Below are positions 1,981-27,821 of a stretch of 64,000 nucleotides of DNA, in pieces. This stretch comes from Kineosporia babensis (GTDB taxonomy: Bacteria; Actinomycetota; Actinomycetes; Actinomycetales; Kineosporiaceae). Below the pieces are notes generated by a model. That model was not told where the DNA came from. It saw nothing but the letters and a program-made list of their open reading frames with translations, and did no database searches. The translations under genes were made by a program, and so were the position numbers. The stretch covers positions 124,001 through 188,000 of the forward strand of contig NZ_JAJOMB010000006.1 of assembly GCF_021129305.1 (NCBI RefSeq). Reading direction: 5' to 3'. Each line of letters starts with the position of its first letter. The first letter of the stretch is position 1.

Positions 1981-3051
1981 CTACGGAACTCGCCTGAGCC
2001 ATTCGTCACTGCGGTACTTGCCGGCCGCCAGTTCCTCGGCCTCGGCCCGGGTGTCGGCGTCCAGCGAGGCCGGCTCCAGGCCGTAGCTGTCGCGGAAGTG
2101 CCCGAGCATGGCCTCGATCACCTTCTCCCGCGAGAGGCCGGTCTGGCTGCGGATCGGGTCGACCCGCTTGACCGCGCTCTTGATGCCCTTGTCGGAGAGC
2201 TTCTCCCGGCCGATCCGGATGATGTCGAGCATCTTGGCCGCATCGATGTCGTAGGACATGGTCACGTGGTGCAGCACCGCCCCCGAGGCCAGGCGCTTCT
2301 GCGCCGCGCCGCCGATCTTCCCGGCGGGGGAGGCGATGTCGTTCAGGGGCACGTAGCTGGCGTCCACCCCGAGCTCGCGCAGCGCCCGGATCACCCAGGC
2401 ATCCAGGAAGGCGTACGACTCGGCGAAGCTCAGGCCCTCGACCAGGGTGGCCGGCACGTAGAGCGAGTAGGTGATGGTGTTGCCGGGCTCGACGAACATC
2501 GCCCCGCCCCCGGAGATCCGCCGCACCACGGTGGCCTCGTGCCGTTCGGCGGCCGCCAGGTCGACCTCGTTCGACAGCGACTGGAACGAGCCGATGATCA
2601 CCGCGTTGGAGGCCCAGTCCCACACCCGCAGCGTCGGCGGGCGGGTACCGGCGCCCACCTGGCGGGCGATCACCTCGTCCAGGGCCATCTGCATGTGCGG
2701 GTGCTGCCGGCCGGTGTCCAGCAGCTCGAAGGCGTGATCGCGCCAGGCGGTGGAACGGCCCAGCGCCCGCAGCACGGCCAGACCTACCGCCGGCGGGTCG
2801 AAGCCGACCATCACCGCGTCCGCCCGAGCCTCGTCCACGGCCTGCACCAGGGCCGCCAGCGGGGCCTCGGCGGACAGCCCCTCCAGCGCCTGCGAGATGC
2901 GGCCCAGCGCCTCGTCCGGTTCCAGGAAGAAATCGCCGGACAGGACGATGTCGGCCAGCCGGCCGTCCTGGACCGTCAGGTCGGCGACCACGAGCTTGCC
3001 ACCCGGGACCTTGAACTCGCCGTGCCGGCGTTCGGCAGATGTAGAAGTCAC
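1981..3051 (-). CDS. Lipoate--protein ligase family protein with N-terminal accessory domain
   Basis: The 356-residue protein attaches lipoate (or a related acid) to lipoyl domains of 2-oxoacid dehydrogenases or the glycine-cleavage H protein. Residues about 10-100 resemble the small accessory (C-terminal type) domain of lipoate ligases (GEFKVPGGKLVVADL ... DFFLEPDEAL). The catalytic BPL/LplA fold follows, with RRISGGGAMF for substrate binding and KIGGAAQKR carrying the conserved lysine. In E. coli LplA the accessory domain is at the C-terminus, so the order is permuted. The start is GTG (3051). The gene is divergent from the downstream nitrilase gene with about 85 bp between. A transferase (LipM-like) role remains possible. 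Confidence 0.8.
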   Translation of the reverse strand: MTSTSAERRHGEFKVPGGKLVVADLTVQDGRLADIVLSGDFFLEPDEALGRISQALEGLSAEAPLAALVQAVDEARADAVMVGFDPPAVGLAVLRALGRSTAWRDHAFELLDTGRQHPHMQMALDEVIARQVGAGTRPPTLRVWDWASNAVIIGSFQSLSNEVDLAAAERHEATVVRRISGGGAMFVEPGNTITYSLYVPATLVEGLSFAESYAFLDAWVIRALRELGVDASYVPLNDIASPAGKIGGAAQKRLASGAVLHHVTMSYDIDAAKMLDIIRIGREKLSDKGIKSAVKRVDPIRSQTGLSREKVIEAMLGHFRDSYGLEPASLDADTRAEAEELAAGKYRSDEWLRRVP

Positions 3052-3135
3052 CTTCGGGCCAACTGCCGGGCCCCGGGCTTCATGCCGGACCGGCCGGGAG
3101 CGAGGGGCAACTCACAGGCCCTACTCTTCGGGGTT

Positions 3136-3954
3136 GTGCCTGGAACCACCGTGTCGATACGCCTGCTGCAGACCGATCCCACACTGGGCGACGTCGAGGG
3201 GAATCTGCGGCACCTGGACGAGCTGGTGGCGCAGGCGCGAGGGCGGGACCTGGTGGTGGCCACCGAGCTCGCCACCCACGGCTACCACCTCGGCGACCTG
3301 GACGAGCCCGAGCAGCTGGGCGCGGACGATCCCCGCCTGCTCGCGCTGGGCCGGCACGGGCCGACGGTGGTGGCCGGGTTCGCCGAGAGCACCCGGCTGC
3401 ACCGCTACAACAGCGCAGCGATCATCTCCGGCGACCAGGTGCGGGTGCAGCGCAAGCTGTTCCTGCCCAACTACCGGGCCTGGGAGGAACGCAAGCACTT
3501 CCGGCCGGGCTCCGAACTGGAATGCATGGACGTGGTGGGCACCCGGGTCGCCACCCTGATCTGTAACGACGCCTGGCAGCCACCACTGCCCTGGGTGGCC
3601 GCGCACGACGGGGCCGAGGTGCTGCTGGTGCCCGCCAACAGCGTGGTCAGCGAGATCGGGACACCCACGTCGCACGCCTGGGAGCTGCTGCTCCAGCACG
3701 CCGCGGTGACGCTGCAGACCTACGTCGTGTTCGTGAACCGCTCGGGGGTCGAGAGCGGTCAGCGGTTCTGGGGCGGATCGCGGGTGTACGGGCCGACCGG
3801 AGACGTGATCGGTGAACTCGGCGAGGAGCCCGGCGTGCTGGACGTCGACCTCGATCTGACCGAGTTGCGGCGGCTGCGGCGGGCCTGGCCGTTGCTGCAG
3901 GAAACCCGGGCGGACCTGATGGCCCGGCTGGTATCGCGCCTCGGCGATGCGTAG
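3136..3954 (+). CDS. Carbon-nitrogen hydrolase (nitrilase superfamily)
   Basis: The 272-residue cytosolic enzyme hydrolyses an amide or nitrile C-N bond. The nitrilase catalytic triad can be read: Glu in ATELATHG, Lys in QRKLFLPNY and Cys in LICNDAW. The N-terminus (IRLLQTDPTLGDVEGNL) is the classic first strand of the family. The likely start is GTG 3136, with GTG 3151 as an alternative. A TACTCT hexamer 8 nt upstream suggests a leaderless message. The in-frame open region further upstream lies antisense to the lipoate ligase and is not coding. The substrate is not predictable; the gene is followed 14 nt later by a DNA glycosylase and may be co-transcribed with it. Confidence 0.85.
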   Translation: MPGTTVSIRLLQTDPTLGDVEGNLRHLDELVAQARGRDLVVATELATHGYHLGDLDEPEQLGADDPRLLALGRHGPTVVAGFAESTRLHRYNSAAIISGDQVRVQRKLFLPNYRAWEERKHFRPGSELECMDVVGTRVATLICNDAWQPPLPWVAAHDGAEVLLVPANSVVSEIGTPTSHAWELLLQHAAVTLQTYVVFVNRSGVESGQRFWGGSRVYGPTGDVIGELGEEPGVLDVDLDLTELRRLRRAWPLLQETRADLMARLVSRLGDA

Positions 3955-3968
3955 GAAAAGCTTGCCGG

Positions 3969-4787
3969 GTGCCCGAAGGTGACACGGTGTATCTGCTGGC
4001 TCGACGGCTGAATGCCCGGCTGCGTGCTCAGCTGGTGCTGAAATCGGACTTCCGGGTGCCGCAGCACGCCACCGCCGACCTGGGCGGGGCGCGACTGCTG
4101 GGCACCGATACGCACGGCAAGCACCTGCTCACCCGCTTCGACAGTCCGCGCACCGGGCCGTTGACCCTGCACACCCATCTGCGGATGGACGGCTCGTGGA
4201 CCGTGCTCAACCCGGGTAAACACCTGCCGCGCCGGGTGCTGCCGGACCTGCGGGTGCTGCTGCGCTTCGAGAACGGGCTCAGCGCGGCCGGGCTCAAGCT
4301 CCCGGTGGTGGAGCTGCTGAAGACGGCCGATGAGGGACGCGTGACCGCCCACCTCGGTCCCGATCCACTGCGACCGGACTGGGACCGGGACGCAGCACTC
4401 GCCCGGCTCAGTGCAGACGGAGACCGGGCGCTCAGCGCGGCCCTGCTCGATCAGACCCGGATGGCCGGGCTGGGCAACCTCTGGGTCAACGAACTGTGCT
4501 TCCTGCGCGGTGTTTCCCCGTGGACCCCGGTCCGCGAGGTCGACCTGCCCGCGGTGGTCGATCTGGCGGTGCGGCTGCTGCGCTTCTCGGTGAACACCCC
4601 GGGCGCCGCTCAGGTCACGACCGGCGACACCCGCCCGGGCCATACCCACTGGGTAGCTGGGCGTGCTGGTCAGCCCTGCCGCCGCTGCGGTACCCGGGTT
4701 CAGGTGGTGGCCGAGGTCAGCGGTGATCCCGAGCGGCGGCGCACCTGGTGGTGTTCGCATTGCCAGCCCGGCCCACCGCCGCCCTGA
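3969..4787 (+). CDS. Fpg/Nei-family DNA glycosylase/AP lyase (endonuclease VIII-like)
   Basis: The 272-residue base-excision repair enzyme removes oxidised bases and nicks the abasic site by beta/delta elimination. After removal of the initiator residue the chain begins with catalytic Pro-Glu (MPEGDTVYLLARRL), as in Nei rather than Fpg proteins. The helix-two-turn-helix region has LLDQTRMAGLGNLWVNE with the conserved Asn. The C-terminus ends in a zinc finger of the form CRRCG ... CSHC. The start is GTG 3969. The length matches mycobacterial Nei2. It lies 14 nt after the nitrilase gene and is convergent with the DUF3500 lipoprotein gene, with only 6 bp between. Confidence 0.9.
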   Translation: MPEGDTVYLLARRLNARLRAQLVLKSDFRVPQHATADLGGARLLGTDTHGKHLLTRFDSPRTGPLTLHTHLRMDGSWTVLNPGKHLPRRVLPDLRVLLRFENGLSAAGLKLPVVELLKTADEGRVTAHLGPDPLRPDWDRDAALARLSADGDRALSAALLDQTRMAGLGNLWVNELCFLRGVSPWTPVREVDLPAVVDLAVRLLRFSVNTPGAAQVTTGDTRPGHTHWVAGRAGQPCRRCGTRVQVVAEVSGDPERRRTWWCSHCQPGPPPP

Positions 4788-4793
4788 AACCGA

Positions 4794-6041
4794 TCACTCG
4801 CCGGCCGGGGGAGTGCCACCAGCGCCACCGTCGCCGCCCGCCGGGCCACCGTTCATCCCAGACGCTGCCTGCTGGGTGACGCTGCCGGCGTAGTCGTTGC
4901 TGGGGTCGCGGTAGATGGTGTGGATGTGGCCCCAGCCGGCGGTGGTGACGCCGTCGACGTCCGCGCCTGCCGAGCCCTGCTGGCTGGAGAGCTCGATGAA
5001 GACGTCGGGGCCGGAGATCTGGTAGTAGATGCCTTCGCCGATGCTCATGTCGTAGCTGGTGGCGCCGGACCAGTTGATGTACGTCTCGTCGAGGGTGGCC
5101 TCAATCTCGGCGAGCGCGGCGTCGGTGGTCTCCTGGTCGGACAGGCCCACCCAGTTGGCGATCACCTCGAGCAGCAGCTCTTGCTGCTCGTCGGTGAGAT
5201 CGGCGCCGGAGATGCCGGTGCCGGTGGGGTAGTCGCAGGTGTCTCCCGGCGCGCAGGTGAGGTTGGAGACGTCCTCGCTCTGGTAGAGGGTTGCCTGCTG
5301 CTCGGTGGTGAGGCTGTTGTAGAAGGCGAAGGCGTCCTCGTACATGCCGGCCAGGGGCTGGACTTCTTCACCGTCCTCGTTGGTGTAGACCGCGGGCTGC
5401 GAGCCGAGGTGGGTGGGGGCGAAGGTGATCGCGTTACCGGTGCCGTCGAGGGTGGCGTTGATGCCGAGGTGATGACCGCCGAACTGCAGCTCCCAGGCGG
5501 AGGAGTCGGACGGGTCGCCGAACAGGGCGATGTAGTACTGGCCGAGAGAGTCTTCGGTGGTGGTGCTGTTCTCGAGAAGGTATTCGTCGCCGGCGATGAT
5601 GCCGGTGACCGTCTCGTACCCCTCTTCGCTGAGCAGGGCCTGCAGCACCTTCATCGCCGCTGTCTGCTGTTCCTCGGTCAGGTCGGTGAGATTGAGGCCG
5701 GCGCGGTCGACGAAGGTGACCGGGAAGTTCGACCAGGACGTGGTTTTGGTCTCGTCGTCGTAGTCGTACAGCACGCTCTCGCGCTGCTCGTCCGAGAGGG
5801 TCTCCAGGAAAGCCTCGGCAGCGGCGGCGGTCTCGGTGATCGTCTGTGCGGTGGTGGTCGACTCGCTGGTGGTCGAGGCCACCGAAACCGCCGAGATCGA
5901 GGAGCCGGAGCCCGAACTGGCGCTGGAGCTGGAGGTGGAGGTCGCGGAGCCGCAGCCACTCACCGTGAGCAGCGCGGCCAGTCCCACCGAGGCCAGGGAA
6001 AGGTACCGGCGGCGGTGCGTCTTGATCAGTGTCGCGGTCAT
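4794..6041 (-). CDS. DUF3500 lipoprotein
   Basis: The 415-residue product has a positively charged N-terminus, a hydrophobic stretch and the lipobox VSGC at about residues 27-30, so it should be a lipoprotein anchored outside the membrane. A long Ser/Thr-rich linker (about residues 31-70) is followed by a domain resembling DUF3500: FLETLSDEQRESVL, WSNFPV, a TEEQQTAAMKVLQALL block, and GGHHLGINATLDG with paired histidines. The C-terminal tail is Gly/Ala/Pro-rich and disordered. The biochemical role of DUF3500 proteins is unknown. The ATG at 6041 is followed by a normal signal sequence. Confidence 0.75.
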   Translation of the reverse strand: MTATLIKTHRRRYLSLASVGLAALLTVSGCGSATSTSSSSASSGSGSSISAVSVASTTSESTTTAQTITETAAAAEAFLETLSDEQRESVLYDYDDETKTTSWSNFPVTFVDRAGLNLTDLTEEQQTAAMKVLQALLSEEGYETVTGIIAGDEYLLENSTTTEDSLGQYYIALFGDPSDSSAWELQFGGHHLGINATLDGTGNAITFAPTHLGSQPAVYTNEDGEEVQPLAGMYEDAFAFYNSLTTEQQATLYQSEDVSNLTCAPGDTCDYPTGTGISGADLTDEQQELLLEVIANWVGLSDQETTDAALAEIEATLDETYINWSGATSYDMSIGEGIYYQISGPDVFIELSSQQGSAGADVDGVTTAGWGHIHTIYRDPSNDYAGSVTQQAASGMNGGPAGGDGGAGGTPPAGE

Positions 6042-6122
6042 GGGAACAAGGTGTCAGCGCTGCTTGGGGGCTCTCTGGACCTTTGCTGTGCGAAGCCTGT
6101 GCCCAGTGACTAGGCTCGTCCC

Positions 6123-7019
6123 GTGGCTGAGATCACCGCTGACCTGATCACCCACCTGCTGCGCGAACAGCATCCGGATCTGGCTCATCTGCCGGTGACC
6201 TTCGCGGCCAGCGGCTGGGACAACCAGTTGTGGCGCCTCGGCGAGGAACTCGCCGTCCGGGCACCGTGGGCCACCCATCACGCGGGCGCGCTGCTGGTGA
6301 AGGAGTACACCTATCTGCCGGAACTCAGCCGGACACTGCCGCTGAAGACCCCGGTTCCGCAGCGCCTGGGCCGGCCCTCGGAGAGCTTCGATCACCCGTG
6401 GATCGTCACCACCTGGGTCGAGGGCGAGCCGGCCGACCGGGCACCGGTGACCAAGGGCATCGAATCAGCCGACCGCTTGGCGGCGTTCCTCACAGCGCTG
6501 CACCAGCCCGCGCCCAGCGACGCACCGGCGGACGCGGACCGTCGAGGAGTCCCACTGGCCGCTGTGGATCACGGATTCCGGCGTTTCCGGCAGCAGGTAC
6601 CGGCCCAGGCCGAGGCACTGACCGAGATCTGGGAAGACGCGCTCCAGGCACCGGTGTGGGACGGGCCGCCCATGTGGGTGCACGCCGACCTGCACGCTGC
6701 GAACGTGCTGACCGAAGACGGAAACATCTGCGGCATCATCGACTTCGGCGCCCTGTGCGCCGGAGACCCAGCTGTCGACCTGGCCGGCGCCTGGCTGTTG
6801 CTGCCCACCGAAGGCATCGACCACTTCAGCGCCCAGCTCGATGACGCCACCCGCCGCCGCGCTCGCGGCTGGGCCACGCTGAAAGCCCTGGCCTGCCTCA
6901 GCATCGGCACCGATACAGGCCCGGGCGGCAAACCCAGCTGGGCGCCCCCAGCCCGTGCGGCCCTGACCTACTTGGTAGGCCTGTCCTGCGGATCTTTGCC
7001 TACTGCGGGGCACCCGTGA
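6123..7019 (+). CDS. Aminoglycoside phosphotransferase (APH)-family kinase
   Basis: The 298-residue protein belongs to the APH/choline-kinase fold. The Brenner catalytic motif VHADLHAANVL (about residues 182-192) and the metal-binding IIDFGALCAGDPAVDLA are intact. The N-lobe has SGWDNQLWRLGEELAVRAP. These enzymes phosphorylate hydroxyl groups of small molecules; some confer antibiotic resistance, but most chromosomal actinobacterial members have unknown substrates, so resistance is not claimed. The GTG start at 6123 has no Shine-Dalgarno sequence; TAGGCT (6111-6116) lies 6 nt upstream, suggesting leaderless expression. It is divergent from the DUF3500 gene. Confidence 0.8.
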   Translation: MAEITADLITHLLREQHPDLAHLPVTFAASGWDNQLWRLGEELAVRAPWATHHAGALLVKEYTYLPELSRTLPLKTPVPQRLGRPSESFDHPWIVTTWVEGEPADRAPVTKGIESADRLAAFLTALHQPAPSDAPADADRRGVPLAAVDHGFRRFRQQVPAQAEALTEIWEDALQAPVWDGPPMWVHADLHAANVLTEDGNICGIIDFGALCAGDPAVDLAGAWLLLPTEGIDHFSAQLDDATRRRARGWATLKALACLSIGTDTGPGGKPSWAPPARAALTYLVGLSCGSLPTAGHP

Positions 7020-22579: not shown

Positions 22580-22945
22580 ATGGATCAGGCTTGGCAGATC
22601 GAGCAGGAGTTCTGGCAGGCCTCGTCCGACGAGGTGGGCCCGCAGCAGTGGTTCGCCAAGTACATGGAGACCGACGGCTTCATCGTCCTGCCCAACCGGG
22701 TGGTCAACCGGGACGACCTGGTGCACGGCTGGCACGACCGCAAGCCCCTGAAGTCCTGGACCCTCGGCGAACCCAGCTTCACCGTGATCGAGGGCGGCAA
22801 CCTGGTGATCCGCTACGAGGCCCATTTCGAGGCCGACTGGCTGCCCAGCTACGACGCCTTCATCACCTCGGTCTACGTCTGGGGCACCGGTCACTGGACC
22901 CTGGTCTGCCGTACCCACACCCCCCGCGGGTCCTTCCCGTTCTGA
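22580..22945 (+). CDS. SnoaL/DUF4440-like protein
   Basis: The 121-residue protein starts MDQAWQIEQEFWQASSD and continues with a cone-shaped NTF2-like pattern: FIVLPNRVVNRDDLVHGWHD, WTLGEPSFTVIEGG, YVWGTGHWTLVCRTHTP. DUF4440 proteins of this size are usually cytosolic, with unknown ligands. A TAGGAT hexamer lies 42 nt upstream of the ATG. Its last 55 bp overlap the convergent sugar-kinase gene on the opposite strand. Confidence 0.7.
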   Translation: MDQAWQIEQEFWQASSDEVGPQQWFAKYMETDGFIVLPNRVVNRDDLVHGWHDRKPLKSWTLGEPSFTVIEGGNLVIRYEAHFEADWLPSYDAFITSVYVWGTGHWTLVCRTHTPRGSFPF

Positions 22946-23877
22946 GCGGCCAGCAACGCGTTCAGGCCGGACAAGGTGGCCGCGCCTTCCATCGGCCCCA
23001 GCTTCGTCACCGCGTGAGCGCCCGCAGCATTGGCGTAACGCAGTGTGGTTTCCGGGTCGGCGCCAGCCAGCCAGAAGCTAACGTAGGCGCCGGCGAAGCA
23101 GTCTCCGGCGCCGGTGGGATCCACCTCGTCCACCGTCAGCGCCGCCGCATCGATGCGGCCGTGCTGATCGAAGCGGCTGGCCCCCTGATTCCCGCGCTTG
23201 ATCACCACCGTGCCGATGCCCCGCTGCAGCAGTTCGGTCACCGCCGCAGCCTCGTCCTTGGACTCGGTGAACAGGAAGATCTCCTCGCCGGAGGGCAGGA
23301 ACACGTCGCACTGGGCCAGAACCTCGTCCAGCGCCTCGGGTAGGCCGGGCGCCTGCAGGATCTCGGGCCGCAGGTTCGGGTCGAAACTCAGGGAGCCGCC
23401 GCGCGCCTTGACCCTGCGGACGGCTTCGCGGGCCAGGTGCGCGATGCCGGGCGCGGACAGGGCGCTGCCCATGATGTGCAGGTGGTCGCACCGCTCGATC
23501 AGGGCCTCGGCCGACGGCGTGAGCGAAAGACGGCCGGTGGCGCTGTGCGCGATGTTGAAGACGAAGGCCCGGGAACCGTCGGGCCGGTAGCGCACGAACG
23601 CCGACCCGGTGGTCTCGCCGGCCGCGACCTCGATGCCGGACACGTCGACCCCGTCGGCGCGCAGACGATTCAGGTTCAGCCGGCCGAAGTCGTCGTCGCC
23701 GACCCGGGAGACGATCGCAGCCGGGGTGCCGAGGCGGCTCACCTGGTCGATGAAGATGGCAGGGGCACCGGAGGGGAACGGGCCGACCAGGGGCTGCGGC
23801 TCGCCGAAGCCCTCGCCCGGGGTGGTGGCCATGATCTCCACCAGAATCTCGCCGATCGTCAGCACTGTGGCGGCCAT
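22891..23877 (-). CDS. PfkB-family sugar kinase, tagatose-kinase-like
   Basis: The 328-residue ribokinase-fold enzyme phosphorylates a sugar with ATP. The N-terminus TIGEILVEIMATTPGEGF and the PFPSGAPAIFIDQVSRLG segment resemble tagatose/sugar kinases of Agrobacterium type. The catalytic DPTGAGDCFAGAY motif near the C-terminus is intact. ATG 23877 has AAGGAG 8 nt upstream. It was originally 17 nt downstream of the aldose epimerase stop and part of the same operon; the TnpB insertion in the epimerase now separates it from the promoter side. The 3' end overlaps the convergent DUF4440 gene by 55 bp. The substrate is inferred by similarity only. Confidence 0.8.
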   Translation of the reverse strand: MAATVLTIGEILVEIMATTPGEGFGEPQPLVGPFPSGAPAIFIDQVSRLGTPAAIVSRVGDDDFGRLNLNRLRADGVDVSGIEVAAGETTGSAFVRYRPDGSRAFVFNIAHSATGRLSLTPSAEALIERCDHLHIMGSALSAPGIAHLAREAVRRVKARGGSLSFDPNLRPEILQAPGLPEALDEVLAQCDVFLPSGEEIFLFTESKDEAAAVTELLQRGIGTVVIKRGNQGASRFDQHGRIDAAALTVDEVDPTGAGDCFAGAYVSFWLAGADPETTLRYANAAGAHAVTKLGPMEGAATLSGLNALLAAQNGKDPRGVWVRQTRVQ

Positions 23878-23894: not shown

Positions 23895-24008
23895 TCAGTC
23901 TCCGGGCGCCGGCTGCAGATGCACCGACCAGGTCGTGAACCATTCGCCACCTGGCTCGAGCCAGGCCAGATCGGTTCCCGACCGCAAAGCGTCGGGTGGT
24001 GCGGTCAA
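23895..24008 (-). pseudogene. Aldose 1-epimerase 3' fragment, separated by the IS insertion
   Basis: Read on the minus strand from 24008, the sequence encodes LTAPPDALRSGTDLAWLEPG and then a further 17 residues before TGA (23897-23895). This is the normal C-terminus of GalM-type mutarotases and continues exactly in frame from the epimerase 5' fragment ending at 25538. It has no start codon of its own. The fragment lies immediately upstream of the sugar kinase. Confidence 0.9.
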
Positions 24009-24021
24009 CGGATCACCGTCA

Positions 24022-24054
24022 GGGAACCCGGTCCTTCAGGTCCGGGAGGAATGA
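24022..24054 (+). repeat. Left-end subterminal hairpin of the IS element
   Basis: CCCGG (24027-24031) and CCGGG (24042-24046) flank TCCTTCAGGT, forming a small imperfect hairpin of the type recognised by Y1 transposases. The block GGAACCC...TTCAGG...CGGGAGGA closely resembles the right-end block at 25503-25531, so the two ends carry related copies in the same orientation. Confidence 0.6.
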
Positions 24055-24296
24055 CGGTCACGCCTGGGCGTGATGAGTCGGGTGTTTCTTGACGTCGTCG
24101 GCGGCGCTGTGGTCAAGAAGGACGGTATTCAGCTGTGGTCGTGGGGTGGTTGATCCGGCTGGTGTACGCGGCGCGTTGGGTGTTGTGCTGGGATGTCCTT
24201 GAGATCTGTTAGCCGGTTGGTGCAGGGTGAATAGGCCGCCGTTGATAACACTGTGCTAGTTCTTGATAACGAAGGGTTAATGGTAGTTTTGAGTGT

Positions 24297-25496
24297 ATGT
24301 CCCGGTTCCGGCTGTATCCGACTGCGGCGCAGGAGGTGCTGTTGCTGGAGGCGTGTGGGCATGCCCGGTACGTGTGGAACCTGGCCCTGGAGCAGAGGAA
24401 CATGTGGCGGCGGGACCGTCCGCACGCCCCGGGTTATGTGGCGCAGGCCAGGCAGTTGACCGAGGCGCGTCGTGAGTTTGATTGGTTGGCGGCTGGTTCG
24501 GTCACGGTGCAGCAGCAGGCGCTGCGGGATCATGACCAGGCGTGGCAGAACTTCTTCGCTGGTACGCATGGTCGGCCGACCTGGCGTAAACGCGGCCAGA
24601 GCGAGGGGTTCCGGATCGTCGGCGGCGAGGCGCAGCGGGTGCGTCGGGACAATGGTCGCTGGTCGGCGGTGAGCGTGCCGAAGGTGGGCTGGGTGCGGTT
24701 CAAGCGTTCCCGGCATCTGCCGGACTTCAAGTCGTATCGGGTGACGCGGGATCGGGCAGGGCGCTGGCACATCGCGTTCGCTGCGATCCCGGACCCGATC
24801 CCCGCGCCGGGTACTGGTGAGGTGGTCGGTGTGGACCGGGGTGTGAAGGTCGCCGCCGCGTTGTCCACGGGCGAACTGTCGTCCCCGGCTGGCCTGCGTC
24901 CCCAAGAAGCTCAGCGGTTGCTGCGGCTTCAGCGGTGTCTGTCCCGGGCCCGGAAGGGGTCCGGTCGGCGTGAGCGGGTCAAGAGGCAGATCGCCCGCTT
25001 GCGGGCGCGTGAGGCCGACCGGCGCAAGGACTGGGCCGAGAAGGCCAGTACCGGTCTGGCTCGCCGGTTCGACGTGATCGGCGTCGAGGCCCTGAACGTC
25101 AGGGCGATGACCCGCTCGGCGCGCGGCACCGAAGCTACGCCGGGCCGTAACGTCCGGCAGAAAGCGGGGTTGAACCGGGGCATCCTCGCCGCCGGATGGG
25201 GCCTGCTGGTGGCCCGTCTAGAGCAGAAGGCGCCTGAGCGGGTCGTGAGGATCTACCCGGCGTTTACGTCGCAGACCTGTCACGCCTGCGGGCATCGCGC
25301 GCCGGAGAACCGCAAGAGTCAAGCGGTGTTCCGGTGTGTGGCCTGCGGGTATCAGGCGAATGCTGATGTGAACGCTGCTCGTAATATCAGGGATATCGCC
25401 GCAGGGCTTGCGGTGACAGCGCGTGGAGACAGGGTGAAGTCGGCCCGGTCGGTGAAGCGTGAACCTCAACGAAAACGCGTCCCCACGGTCGCGTAA
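24297..25496 (+). CDS. tnpB: TnpB RNA-guided nuclease (IS200/IS605 family)
   Basis: The 399-residue protein has an N-terminal helix-turn-helix (SRFRLYPTAAQEVLLLEACG ...), a WED/REC-like middle, and a split RuvC nuclease. The RuvC acidic residues are Asp180 (VGVDRGVK), Glu264 (IGVEALNVRAM) and Asp357 (NADVNAARNI), and a zinc ribbon CHACG ... CVACG lies between the last two. All catalytic residues are present, so the nuclease should be active. Its guide RNA should derive from the 3' end of the element. Two TTGATAAC direct repeats (24242, 24263) sit in the promoter region. GC content and codon bias are slightly lower than neighbours. Confidence 0.93.
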   Translation: MSRFRLYPTAAQEVLLLEACGHARYVWNLALEQRNMWRRDRPHAPGYVAQARQLTEARREFDWLAAGSVTVQQQALRDHDQAWQNFFAGTHGRPTWRKRGQSEGFRIVGGEAQRVRRDNGRWSAVSVPKVGWVRFKRSRHLPDFKSYRVTRDRAGRWHIAFAAIPDPIPAPGTGEVVGVDRGVKVAAALSTGELSSPAGLRPQEAQRLLRLQRCLSRARKGSGRRERVKRQIARLRAREADRRKDWAEKASTGLARRFDVIGVEALNVRAMTRSARGTEATPGRNVRQKAGLNRGILAAGWGLLVARLEQKAPERVVRIYPAFTSQTCHACGHRAPENRKSQAVFRCVACGYQANADVNAARNIRDIAAGLAVTARGDRVKSARSVKREPQRKRVPTVA

Positions 25497-25537
25497 GTCG
25501 TTGGAATCCCGTCTTTTCAGGGGCGGGAGGATGTCAA
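25400..25537 (+). ncRNA. Predicted omega (reRNA) scaffold and IS right end
   Basis: In TnpB elements the guide RNA scaffold overlaps the tnpB 3' end and ends at the right boundary. Here a terminal hairpin (CCCGTC 25508-25513 with GGCGGG 25522-25527, one G-T pair) is followed by AGGATGTCAA, a right-end form common in actinobacterial TnpB elements. The guide would start at 25538 with GGGTTCCAGAGCAACG, which is epimerase sequence. The 5' boundary given is approximate. Confidence 0.6.
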
Positions 25538-26329
25538 GGGTTCCAGAGCAACGGACGACGACGACGAGGTCAGTTCACCTGCGCGGGGAACGTCCGGGCA
25601 GGTGTAAACCTGCAACCAGCGATACGTTTCGTCGGCCCGCAACTCCACACAACGTCCGTCGGGTGCTCGCAGGCGGTGATGAATCTGTCCGTCGACCACG
25701 TCCAGGCCGCCATAACAATGATTGAGAACGGCACCGCTTAAGGATAAATGGCGGGGCTCGGCCGGACGAGAGCCGTTCGGCAGCAGGCGTTCGTCGAGGT
25801 CCAGAACCTGGCCGGCCGGAACTTCGAGAACCAGGTCGTGCATCGGGACGTCGCCTATACGCAGGTACGGGTGGAAGCCGAGCGCGACCGGGGCACGACG
25901 CGTCCCCAGGTTCTCCACTGCAGTTCGGACATGCAGGCCGTCGTTGAGAGCCCGGTAGATGATGGTCAGATCCACCTCGAACGGATAGCCCGGATCGCCC
26001 GACACGCTGATGCGCAGCCGGGCCAAGTGCGGGGAGACGTGGTTGACGTCGAAGGGACGCGAGCGCACCAGGCCATGATTGGCGTTGTTGCGCTCGGGTT
26101 CGTCGATCGTCAGCTGCTGTTCCTCGCCGTCCAGCCGCCAACGGCCGTCACGCACTCGGTTCGGCCAGGGGAAGAGCACCGCTCCGGCTGCGTGCGGTGC
26201 CGGTTGCCCGGCCGGGTATCCGTCCACGATCGGGCAGCCGTCGACCTCAAGTCCTTGGATGCCGCCACCGTGCGGGTCGATCCAGGCCCGGGTGGCGCCG
26301 TTGCGGGAGACGAGTTCGATCGGGTTCAC
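25517..26329 (-). pseudogene. Aldose 1-epimerase (GalM-like), truncated by the IS insertion
   Basis: From GTG 26329 the frame encodes 264 native residues of a mutarotase that interconverts alpha and beta anomers of aldoses. Recognisable parts are GAVLFPWPNRVRDGRW, ERNNANHGLVRSRPF (catalytic His), ALGFHPYLRIGD (second His) and YGGLDVVDGQ. The catalytic Glu region RSVALEP-like (SVALEP) is the last native sequence; the frame then runs six residues into the IS and stops at 25517. The missing 37 C-terminal residues are found at 23895-24008. The gene lies 20 nt after the phytase-like gene and upstream of a sugar kinase, indicating an interrupted sugar-use operon. Confidence 0.9.
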
Positions 26330-26349: not shown

Positions 26350-27522
26350 CTAGTTGCGCCCGTAGGTGAGGCCGAGCGCGATGACCTGGGTGACCTCTTT
26401 CTCGTTGAAGTTGTTGTCGGACACCAGCACGACCGTCTGCGTGCCGTCCTTCAGCCTCGGCCCGAACGTGATGCCCTCGACGTTGTCCACCACCGGCAGG
26501 CCCTTGACCGAATCCAGGTCCAGCAGCAGCTTCTTCGACATCGGCCGGACGTCGTCGGTGAGGGTGTCGCGGCTCAGGACGTTGGTGGCGCGCTGGGGTG
26601 AGGCCAGGTAGATGCGCACCTTCCACTCGTTCTCGGCGTACACCGAAGCCCGCTCGATCACCAGGAGGTTGCCGTCGTCCAGGGCCAGAACATCGGTCAG
26701 GCCGTTGGTGTCGGTGGCGGCCCCGGCCTGGAACTGCTTCTCCAGCGGGTAGGCGAACTGCGCCTGGGGCCGCTGGGTCTTCAGGTCGTAGCGGGTGATC
26801 CGGGTCAGCGCACCCTTCGCCACGCTCGGCAGCGCACCGTCCTGGTACAGCGGATCTTCCATGGCGGTGTACAGCGTGCGGCCGTCACGCGTGATCGAGA
26901 GTCCCTCCAGCGCCATGTTGCGCCGCGGGCCCACTTCCTGCGTGTTCACGTGGAACTGCGGCGGCTGCTCCGCCTGGCCCAGGTACGTGCCGCTCGGGCT
27001 GGCCGAGCGCAGCCACGGGTCGGCCAGCGCCGTGCCGTCCGCGCCCACCACCCGCTCGCCTTCGCTGGTCCACCAGAGGTTGCCGCTGCGAGGGTCCACC
27101 GCGATGCCCTCGGCGTCCGGCGCGATGGTGCCCTTGGCCGCGTCGGTGGCTGGGAAGGTGGAGCCGTCCTGGTCCAGCAGCGGCTTGGTCCCGGTCAGCT
27201 GCACCGGGCCGAGCTTGCCGTTCTTCAGGCCGATCTCGGCTGTGTAGAACCGGGTCGGGGCCAGCGCTGATCGGTCGTCGCTGATCAGGTAGTAGGTGCC
27301 GGACCGGGCGTCGTAGCTGATCCCGGAGAGGCCACCGACCGGCGTCGAGGCGTACGTGGTGCCGAACGGGATCTGCTGCTCACCAAGGAAACGCAGGCCG
27401 GTCGGCTGCCTGGCCGGCGCGTCGGCAGCCGAGGCGGCGTTCGGAGCCACCGTGGCAACCGTCAGGAGCGCAAGGGCCGCGAGACAGACCCGGACGGGAC
27501 GGGCGAAAGATGAGATCGTCAC
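26350..27522 (-). CDS. Secreted esterase-like/phytase-like beta-propeller protein
   Basis: The 390-residue exported protein has a signal peptide (ARPVRVCLAALALLTVATVAPNAASA) and a domain of the phytase-like/esterase-like family: GGLSGISYDARSGTYYLISDD, DAEGIAVDPRSGNLWWTSEGE, MALEGLSITRDGRTLYTAMED and VEGITFGPRLKDGT. These repeats form a beta-propeller thought to bind calcium and act on phosphoesters or esters; true phytase activity is not established. GTG 27522 is chosen so that a normal signal peptide starts the protein; TTG 27555 is an alternative. It is the first gene of the interrupted sugar operon. Confidence 0.78.
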   Translation of the reverse strand: MTISSFARPVRVCLAALALLTVATVAPNAASAADAPARQPTGLRFLGEQQIPFGTTYASTPVGGLSGISYDARSGTYYLISDDRSALAPTRFYTAEIGLKNGKLGPVQLTGTKPLLDQDGSTFPATDAAKGTIAPDAEGIAVDPRSGNLWWTSEGERVVGADGTALADPWLRSASPSGTYLGQAEQPPQFHVNTQEVGPRRNMALEGLSITRDGRTLYTAMEDPLYQDGALPSVAKGALTRITRYDLKTQRPQAQFAYPLEKQFQAGAATDTNGLTDVLALDDGNLLVIERASVYAENEWKVRIYLASPQRATNVLSRDTLTDDVRPMSKKLLLDLDSVKGLPVVDNVEGITFGPRLKDGTQTVVLVSDNNFNEKEVTQVIALGLTYGRN

Positions 27523-27821
27523 CCGCCAATGCCAGCTGGGCCCGGTGCCCGGCAATCGTCCGGGACGTGGAGGCCCGGTGAACGGCTGCTGCCGTCATCA
27601 GCAGTTGGAGAAAGCGGTGGGGATGGTGGCGGCGCTCTGGGCACCGGCCACGGCGAGGTCTGCGCGGCGGTCACCGCTTTGGTGAGCGGCCCTCACGCAG
27701 CGAGACCACGCTGATCCGGCGGAGTGACGACCACCGCACCAACTGTCGGGGATGCAACGTCCACCCGGCAACGGACGTCCGTCGGCGGTTGGAGCAAACG
27801 GTTTCCGAGGGGGGAACTTTT

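What the first reader, a model, noticed from the sequence alone, without database searches (positions are those of the whole stretch)
23895..26329. Sugar operon split by a TnpB element; precise removal restores the epimerase
The epimerase 5' part ends with SVALEP at 25538, exactly where IS right-end sequence begins, and the missing C-terminus (LTAPPDALRSGTDLAWLEPG...) is encoded at 24008-23895 on the same strand. Joining 25538 to 24008 keeps the frame and gives a 301-residue GalM with a 17-nt gap to the sugar kinase. The insertion therefore inactivated a phytase-like/galM/kinase operon recently, with no decay of either half.
Basis: partly seen in the sequence, partly recalled or inferred. Interest (0 to 1): 0.85.

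Follow-up and report, generated by a model that had tools for sequence, protein, structure and literature searches.

The report
TnpB element splitting a sugar-epimerase gene
A small jumping element carrying an RNA-guided DNA-cutting enzyme has landed inside a bacterial sugar-processing gene and cut off about its last eighth; this is an ordinary event, though one altered base beside the element hints that it may no longer be able to leave cleanly.

Summary
A 1,529-bp IS200/IS605-type, tnpB-only (IS1341-like) element, window 24009-25537 (+), interrupts an aldose 1-epimerase gene (-). Without it a 906-nt, 301-codon frame remains, which aligns across the junction with homologues in 93 of 93 loci examined; the nearest, in a congener, is 56% identical. 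The downstream kinase passes NCBIfam's tagatose-kinase cut-off. The ends are IS608-like.

Three corrections.
1. "Recently" is unproven: the other own-genome copies are 80-90% identical to this one, the one Y1 transposase gene found is broken, and no empty site was seen.
2. The "operon" was not seen elsewhere.
3. Precise removal would leave an unusual residue. In 92 of 93 homologues codon 265 is ATG (target TCAT); the window has TTG (TCAA). In 40 distinct left ends the flank is TCAC or TCAT and tracks the element's guide base; here that base predicts TCAT. So base 24008 probably changed after insertion, which may hinder excision and TnpB re-targeting (inference).

It is a new member of a known kind.

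The parts
24009..25537 (+). tnpB-only IS200/IS605-type (IS1341-like) element, 1529 bp
   Evidence: Joined flanks give an intact epimerase frame; ends match the IS608 layout; three further copies of the tnpB region in the genome at 80-90% identity
24005..24008 (+). Left-flank target tetranucleotide, now TCAA, expected TCAT
   Evidence: 40 distinct element left ends from other genomes: 22 TCAC, 18 TCAT, 0 TCAA; own copy on C19 has TCAT
24023..24046 (+). Left-end guide (GGAA, last base A at 24026) and subterminal hairpin CCCGGTCCTTCAGGTCCGGG (24027-24046)
   Evidence: folds as single-stranded DNA, 8 of 200 shuffles fold as well
24059..24296 (+). Leader with no tnpA remnant found
   Evidence: Longest exact match of the stretch 24009-24296 to the decayed tnpA of copy D is 11 bp
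24297..25496 (+). tnpB, 399 aa, RNA-guided endonuclease family; RuvC residues in GVDRG, GVEAL and ADVNAA (roles recalled) plus zinc ribbon present
   Evidence: Pfam OrfB_IS605, Cas12f1-like_TNB, HTH_OrfB_IS605; NCBIfam guided_TnpB 247 bits against cut-off 100; alignment to a PDB TnpB-like chain
25504..25537 (+). Right end: GAAT guide (25504-25507), hairpin (25508-25527), AGGATG, terminal TCAA; presumed 3' end of the omega RNA scaffold
   Evidence: Motif (up to 4 mismatches) found in 26 of 28 related loci; GAAT in 24 and TCAA in 25 of these 26. The 5' hairpin arm of this copy differs from the copies on C19 and C23; as DNA, 22 of 200 shuffles fold as well
25538..25557 (+). Presumed guide of the omega RNA (flanking DNA right after the element)
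   Evidence: Inferred from the TnpB mechanism (passages of PMC8612924)
25538..26329 (-). 5' part of the aldose 1-epimerase gene, residues 1-264, GTG start
   Evidence: PF01263, 112 bits
23895..24008 (-). 3' part of the aldose 1-epimerase gene, residues 265-301 and stop
22891..23877 (-). PfkB kinase, 328 aa, named tagatose kinase by NCBIfam NF049991
   Evidence: 451 bits against cut-off 420; PF00294
26350..27555 (-). Phytase-like (PF13449) protein gene, 20 nt upstream of the epimerase gene
   Evidence: in 12 other genomes of the family only weak partial matches, in 4

Best explanation
An IS200/IS605-type element that carries only tnpB (IS1341-like) was inserted, presumably by a Y1 transposase supplied in trans, next to a TCAN tetranucleotide inside an aldose 1-epimerase gene, without target duplication. 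It removed the last 37 codons from the reading frame, so the gene now encodes a 270-residue product that lacks its C-terminal strands and is probably inactive (inferred). The tnpB gene and right end look complete enough to encode a nuclease and its omega RNA, whose guide would be the epimerase sequence after the right end (inferred). The original target was most likely TCAT (codon ATG, Met265), and base 24008 changed from T to A after insertion (inferred; this step alone about 0.65), so the copy is probably poorly excisable and an empty site made from it may not be recognised by TnpB (inferred). The confidence given is for the insertion into one epimerase gene.
For: Joined frame of 906 nt. Alignment across the junction in 93 of 93 homologous loci examined. 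TnpB domains. Own-genome copies share the right-end motif (the C23 copy ends CCAA); the copy on C19 also shares the left-end hairpin. Right-end motif in 26 of 28 related loci, 25 of them ending TCAA. Left flank TCAC or TCAT in 40 distinct left ends, the fourth base following the guide base before the hairpin: guide A 15 of 15 TCAT; guide G 22 TCAC and 2 TCAT; guide T 1 TCAT. In IS608 the target is read by base pairing with the guide, is kept in the left flank and is needed for excision; its CR TCAA and GR GAAT are the same letters as here (passages of PMC5934647). Codon 265 is ATG in 92 of 93 homologues, so the reverse strand reads TCAT. In a model of the congener protein the lost part holds a helix and two strands, one 12 residues long.
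Against: No empty site or orthologous locus was found: 5 congeners and 7 other family genomes lack close relatives of the kinase and phytase-like genes, and a scan of named genomes with the 5' part found none, though that collection may leave out genomes very near the window's own. Leu occurs at position 265 in one intact homologue (L109), so a natural Leu is possible. TnpB activity, an omega RNA and excision were not tested. The 40 left ends are not independent (46 pairs differ at 4 or fewer of 42 bases) and come mostly from one other family; 16 of 76 loci gave no left end by that definition. The GTCAA at both junctions could by itself be read as a 5-bp duplication; the conserved right end of relatives speaks against that. 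The chain keeps the invariant Glu263, so residual activity is not excluded.
Confidence: 0.87

Rival explanations
1. The ancestral gene already had Leu265 (target TCAA), and the element inserted there despite a mismatch with its own guide; nothing changed afterwards and precise excision would fully restore the old gene.
For: One of 93 intact homologues has Leu265 (codon CTG); a guide/target mismatch occurs (guide T with TCAT, 1 of 40).
Against: 0 of 40 left ends have TCAA; it needs both a rare residue and a rare target.
Confidence: 0.22
2. The insertion is old and the locus has been kept because the truncated 270-residue epimerase still works or its loss is harmless.
For: Glu263, invariant in 93 of 93, is retained; the other own-genome copies are only 80-90% identical to this one; two other Aldose_epim genes exist in the genome; the right-end hairpin of this copy is imperfect.
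Against: The lost part holds invariant and near-invariant residues and a long strand; neither part shows more deviation than the intact congener gene.
Confidence: 0.3
3. The element is a recent arrival from another strain or plasmid, moved by a transposase from there, as the first reader implies for its age.
For: Both halves of the gene are in frame and no more diverged at conserved positions than an intact congener gene.
Against: No identical copy in the genome; apparent post-insertion change at 24008; the one Y1 gene found is broken.
Confidence: 0.3

Closest known systems
IS608 (Helicobacter pylori, IS200/IS605 family)
   Same: Right guide GAAT and right cleavage site TCAA are the same letters; insertion 3' of a tetranucleotide kept in the left flank; the target is read by pairing with the left guide; C preferred as first base after the target, as here (passages of PMC5934647)
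   Different: Target TCAC/TCAT in the relatives instead of TTAC; no tnpA in the element
IS1341 group (tnpB-only elements)
   Same: Single tnpB between the two ends; no Y1-derived stretch of more than 20 bp in the leader (criterion in passages of PMC9956272; tested against two tnpA genes)
   Different: None found; whether such elements move on their own is called open in that paper
ISDra2 TnpB (Deinococcus radiodurans)
   Same: RNA-guided nuclease family with RuvC and zinc ribbon; there the TAM equals the left-flank target (passages of PMC8612924)
   Different: TAM TTGAT there; TCAC/TCAT expected here, untested
Sulfolobus islandicus TnpB7
   Same: Right end of the element carries a motif different from the TAM, which is not cut (passages of PMC11043419)
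   Different: Motifs TTTAA (TAM) and TTCAC (end) there; TCAY and TCAA here, TAM untested

Membership tests
IS200/IS605 family, IS1341 group | TnpB (OrfB_IS605) as the only gene | tested here: met
   no tnpA match over 11 bp against two tnpA genes
IS200/IS605 family, IS1341 group | Subterminal hairpins on the same strand at both ends | tested here: met
   the right-end hairpin of this copy is imperfect and not stronger than many shuffles (22 of 200)
IS200/IS605 family, IS1341 group | No target-site duplication; short target kept at the left flank | tested here: met
   GTCAA stands at both junctions, but the right copy belongs to the conserved right end of relatives
IS200/IS605 family, IS1341 group | Mobilised by a Y1 transposase | not testable with these tools
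   One Y1 match in the own genome, with altered HUH residues and a frame break
TCAY-targeting relatives (not a named family) | Left flank TCAC or TCAT | tested here: not met
   TCAA here against 40 of 40 TCAC/TCAT; read as a later point change. This is a preference of the relatives, not a defining feature of the IS200/IS605 family
TnpB RNA-guided nuclease | TnpB domains with RuvC residues and zinc ribbon | tested here: met
   (residue roles recalled)
TnpB RNA-guided nuclease | Guide-RNA-directed cleavage next to a TAM | not testable with these tools
   needs experiment
Aldose 1-epimerase (PF01263) | Homology over the full length when the flanks are joined | tested here: met
   fold of the congener homologue matches GalM structures
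Aldose 1-epimerase (PF01263) | Mutarotase activity | not testable with these tools
   needs experiment
Tagatose kinase (NF049991) | Score above the curated cut-off | tested here: met
   451 against 420 bits

The most novel reading that the evidence does not exclude
The copy is locked: after insertion the target base at 24008 changed so that the left flank now equals the element's own right-end motif TCAA. It no longer pairs with the left guide (hindering excision), and an empty site made from it would carry the motif that TnpB is expected to ignore as 'self', so the copy-and-keep cycle is broken at this locus.
Probability: 0.45. Interest if true: 0.45.

Novelty: new member of a known kind. Interest (0 to 1): 0.33.

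Why it matters
It is a clean natural case of a TnpB element inside a protein-coding gene in which a nearly invariant protein residue at the junction and the element's own guide base independently predict the pre-insertion base. Both predictions disagree with the sequence in the same way, which makes a testable prediction about excision and TnpB re-targeting. Otherwise it is ordinary gene disruption by a known kind of element.

Tried and rejected
Different epimerase families for the two fragments: rejected, since the joined protein aligns through the junction in 93 of 93 loci examined. IS607-type element: rejected as the best fit, because the ends are IS605-like and the TnpB scores 188 bits on IS200_TnpB against 80 on IS607_TnpB, both below their cut-offs. 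Decayed tnpA in the leader: none found. Conserved phytase/epimerase/kinase operon: not found in the flanks held of 93 loci, and no close relatives of kinase or phytase-like gene in family genomes. Rfam: one sub-threshold microRNA hit, taken as chance. Scan of genome contigs with the 5' part: 26 pattern hits, none a relative. A first left-end count with a shifted hairpin pattern was faulty (wrong guide column, one chance row) and was replaced. There 2 of 42 rows were dropped as chance hits: they lack TCA at the expected distance, and they lie on the strand opposite to the left end of the same element (L182 at 3518, L195 at 2023).

Conserved-position test: against all 93 homologues the window protein looks divergent (13 of 68 positions in the 5' part, 1 of 93 homologues with as high a share; 3 of 14 in the 3' part, 7 of 93). 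With the congener as a control it has the same load (15 against 14 of 71, one of the 14 being a gap; 11 positions shared), so I read this as lineage divergence rather than decay.

Full report
What is there. The window is part of a 9.4-Mb, 89-contig genome. On the minus strand lie a phytase-like gene (26350-27555), an aldose 1-epimerase gene in two pieces (26329-25538 and 24008-23895) and a PfkB kinase gene (23877-22891). On the plus strand, between the two pieces, is a tnpB gene (24297-25496). Joining 24008 to 25538 yields 906 nt, 301 codons and no internal stop. As it stands, the epimerase frame runs six codons into the element (LTSSRP) and stops, giving 270 residues.

One gene, not two. The joined protein aligns from residue 40 or before to residue 285 or after in 93 of 93 loci examined. 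87 spans are stop-free; of the other 6, five have one stop at positions 297-298 and one (L116) has a stop in a stretch absent from the query. The nearest relative is a 302-residue protein of a congener, 56% identical, in a different gene neighbourhood; the 3' fragment is 69% and the 5' fragment 56% identical to it. At positions conserved in at least 80% of the other 92 homologues the window protein deviates at 15 of 71 (5' part) and 3 of 14 (3' part); the intact congener protein deviates at 14 of 71 (one a gap) and 3 of 14, 11 and 2 of these positions being shared. So neither half shows decay beyond its lineage. At the 90% level the loads are 4 and 4 of 46, and 2 against 1 of 9; the extra one is residue 265, at the junction itself.

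The element. It has the anatomy of an IS200/IS605 element without a transposase gene. The left end has a hairpin CCCGGTCCTTCAGGTCCGGG 18 nt after the flanking tetranucleotide; the right end has GAAT, a hairpin, AGGATG and TCAA. The own genome has three further copies of the tnpB region at 90, 89 and 80% identity to this one, and a fifth, more distant gene with the TnpB zinc-ribbon domain on C17. The C19 copy shares the left hairpin; no left hairpin was found in the 7-kb stretches around the C8 and C23 copies. In the 28 related loci fetched the right-end motif was found in 26; 24 of these have GAAT, 25 end TCAA and one CCAA. The C23 copy of the own genome also ends CCAA. GAAT and TCAA are the letters given for IS608 (passages of PMC5934647). 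As single-stranded DNA the left end folds better than most shuffles (8 of 200 as good), the right end less clearly (22 of 200). TnpB keeps the RuvC and zinc-ribbon residues (residue roles recalled). The leader holds no trace of tnpA longer than 11 bp, which fits the IS1341 group as used in PMC9956272 (passages). The only Y1 transposase match in the own genome lies beside the C23 copy, covers 86 of 121 profile positions, reads DVY where HUH enzymes have two histidines (motif recalled; compare DHVHLQV in L200), and its C-terminal part lies in another frame. Assembly gaps could hide another.

The odd base. In 76 related loci (from, with overlaps) a left end was recognised by hairpin shape in 60, giving 42 distinct rows, of which 2 were dropped as chance hits on the opposite strand. 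In the remaining 40 the flank is TCAC (22) or TCAT (18), never TCAA. The fourth base follows the guide base just before the hairpin: guide G with TCAC 22 and TCAT 2, guide A with TCAT 15 of 15, guide T with TCAT 1; Fisher p = 5e-9 for the A/G table. The copies are related (46 pairs differ at 4 or fewer of 42 bases), so this figure overstates independence. This is the kind of base-pairing code described for IS608. The window's guide base is A (24026), so TCAT is expected, as at the C19 copy (TCAT, guide A). The window instead has TCAA. Independently, the codon that contains this tetranucleotide is ATG in 92 of 93 homologues (so the plus strand reads TCAT) and CTG in one, while in the window it is TTG. 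The two expectations agree on the same missing base. The simplest reading is insertion at TCAT followed by T to A at 24008; the rival is an ancestral Leu265 with a mismatched insertion.

Consequences (inferred). The left-flank tetranucleotide is needed for excision in IS608 and serves as the TAM in ISDra2 (passages of PMC8612924). In a Sulfolobus TnpB the right-end motif does not work as a TAM, so the native target beside it is not cut (passages of PMC11043419). If this holds here, TCAA is the 'self' motif, and a left flank of TCAA would both hinder excision and make the resulting empty site invisible to TnpB. Precise removal would still give a full-length frame, but with Leu265.

Effect on the gene. 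In a confident model of the congener protein (mean pLDDT 92; fold matches to GalM structures) the part after the junction holds a helix, a short strand and a 12-residue strand. The invariant Glu just before the junction (263, in 93 of 93) is retained; its catalytic role is recalled from Lactococcus GalM. Loss of function is likely but not shown. Two other Aldose_epim genes lie in the genome, so mutarotation need not be lost. The kinase passes the NCBIfam tagatose-kinase cut-off (451 against 420 bits).

What was not found. No empty site: none of 5 congeners or 7 further family genomes holds a close relative of the kinase (leading matches 28-35% identical) or of the phytase-like protein (weak partial matches in 4 of 12), and the scan with the 5' part returned no relative, with the caveat that near genomes may be left out of that collection. 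In the flanks held of 93 loci there is no phytase-like neighbour and no tnpB of this kind; 14 hold a distant PfkB kinase 2-4 kb away. Hence 'recent' and 'operon' remain unproven. Six searches of the open library (listings, and passages of four papers) did not list this case; the general mechanism is described in those papers.

Noticed in passing
L037:3164-3167 and 4724-4727 (own genome C19): The 90% copy sits exactly between two minus-strand ORFs: its left flank TCAT holds the ATG of one ORF (2343-3167) and its terminal TCAA supplies the TGA of the other (4724-6220). This looks like insertion into an ATGA stop/start overlap that spared both ORFs.
   Followed up: partly
L038:2428-3012 (own genome C8): The 89% copy cuts another ORF, which like the epimerase ends in the element-encoded tail LTSSRP; by eye, no continuation of that ORF was seen in 470 bases beyond the tnpB gene, and no left-end hairpin was found.
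   Followed up: partly
L039:2040-2430 (own genome C23): Remnant of a Y1 transposase gene divergent to the tnpB of the 80% copy, with altered HUH residues and a frame break; the only Y1 match found in the genome.
   Followed up: partly
L080 and L081 (congeners G005, G003): Short stretches of 140-177 bp, about 80% identical to the 3' end of the element, remain in two congeners, as old remnants or short derivatives.
   Followed up: no
window:25508-25527: The right-end hairpin of this copy has G-T pairs where the C19 and C23 copies have G-C, which would weaken a DNA hairpin more than the omega RNA (inference).
   Followed up: partly
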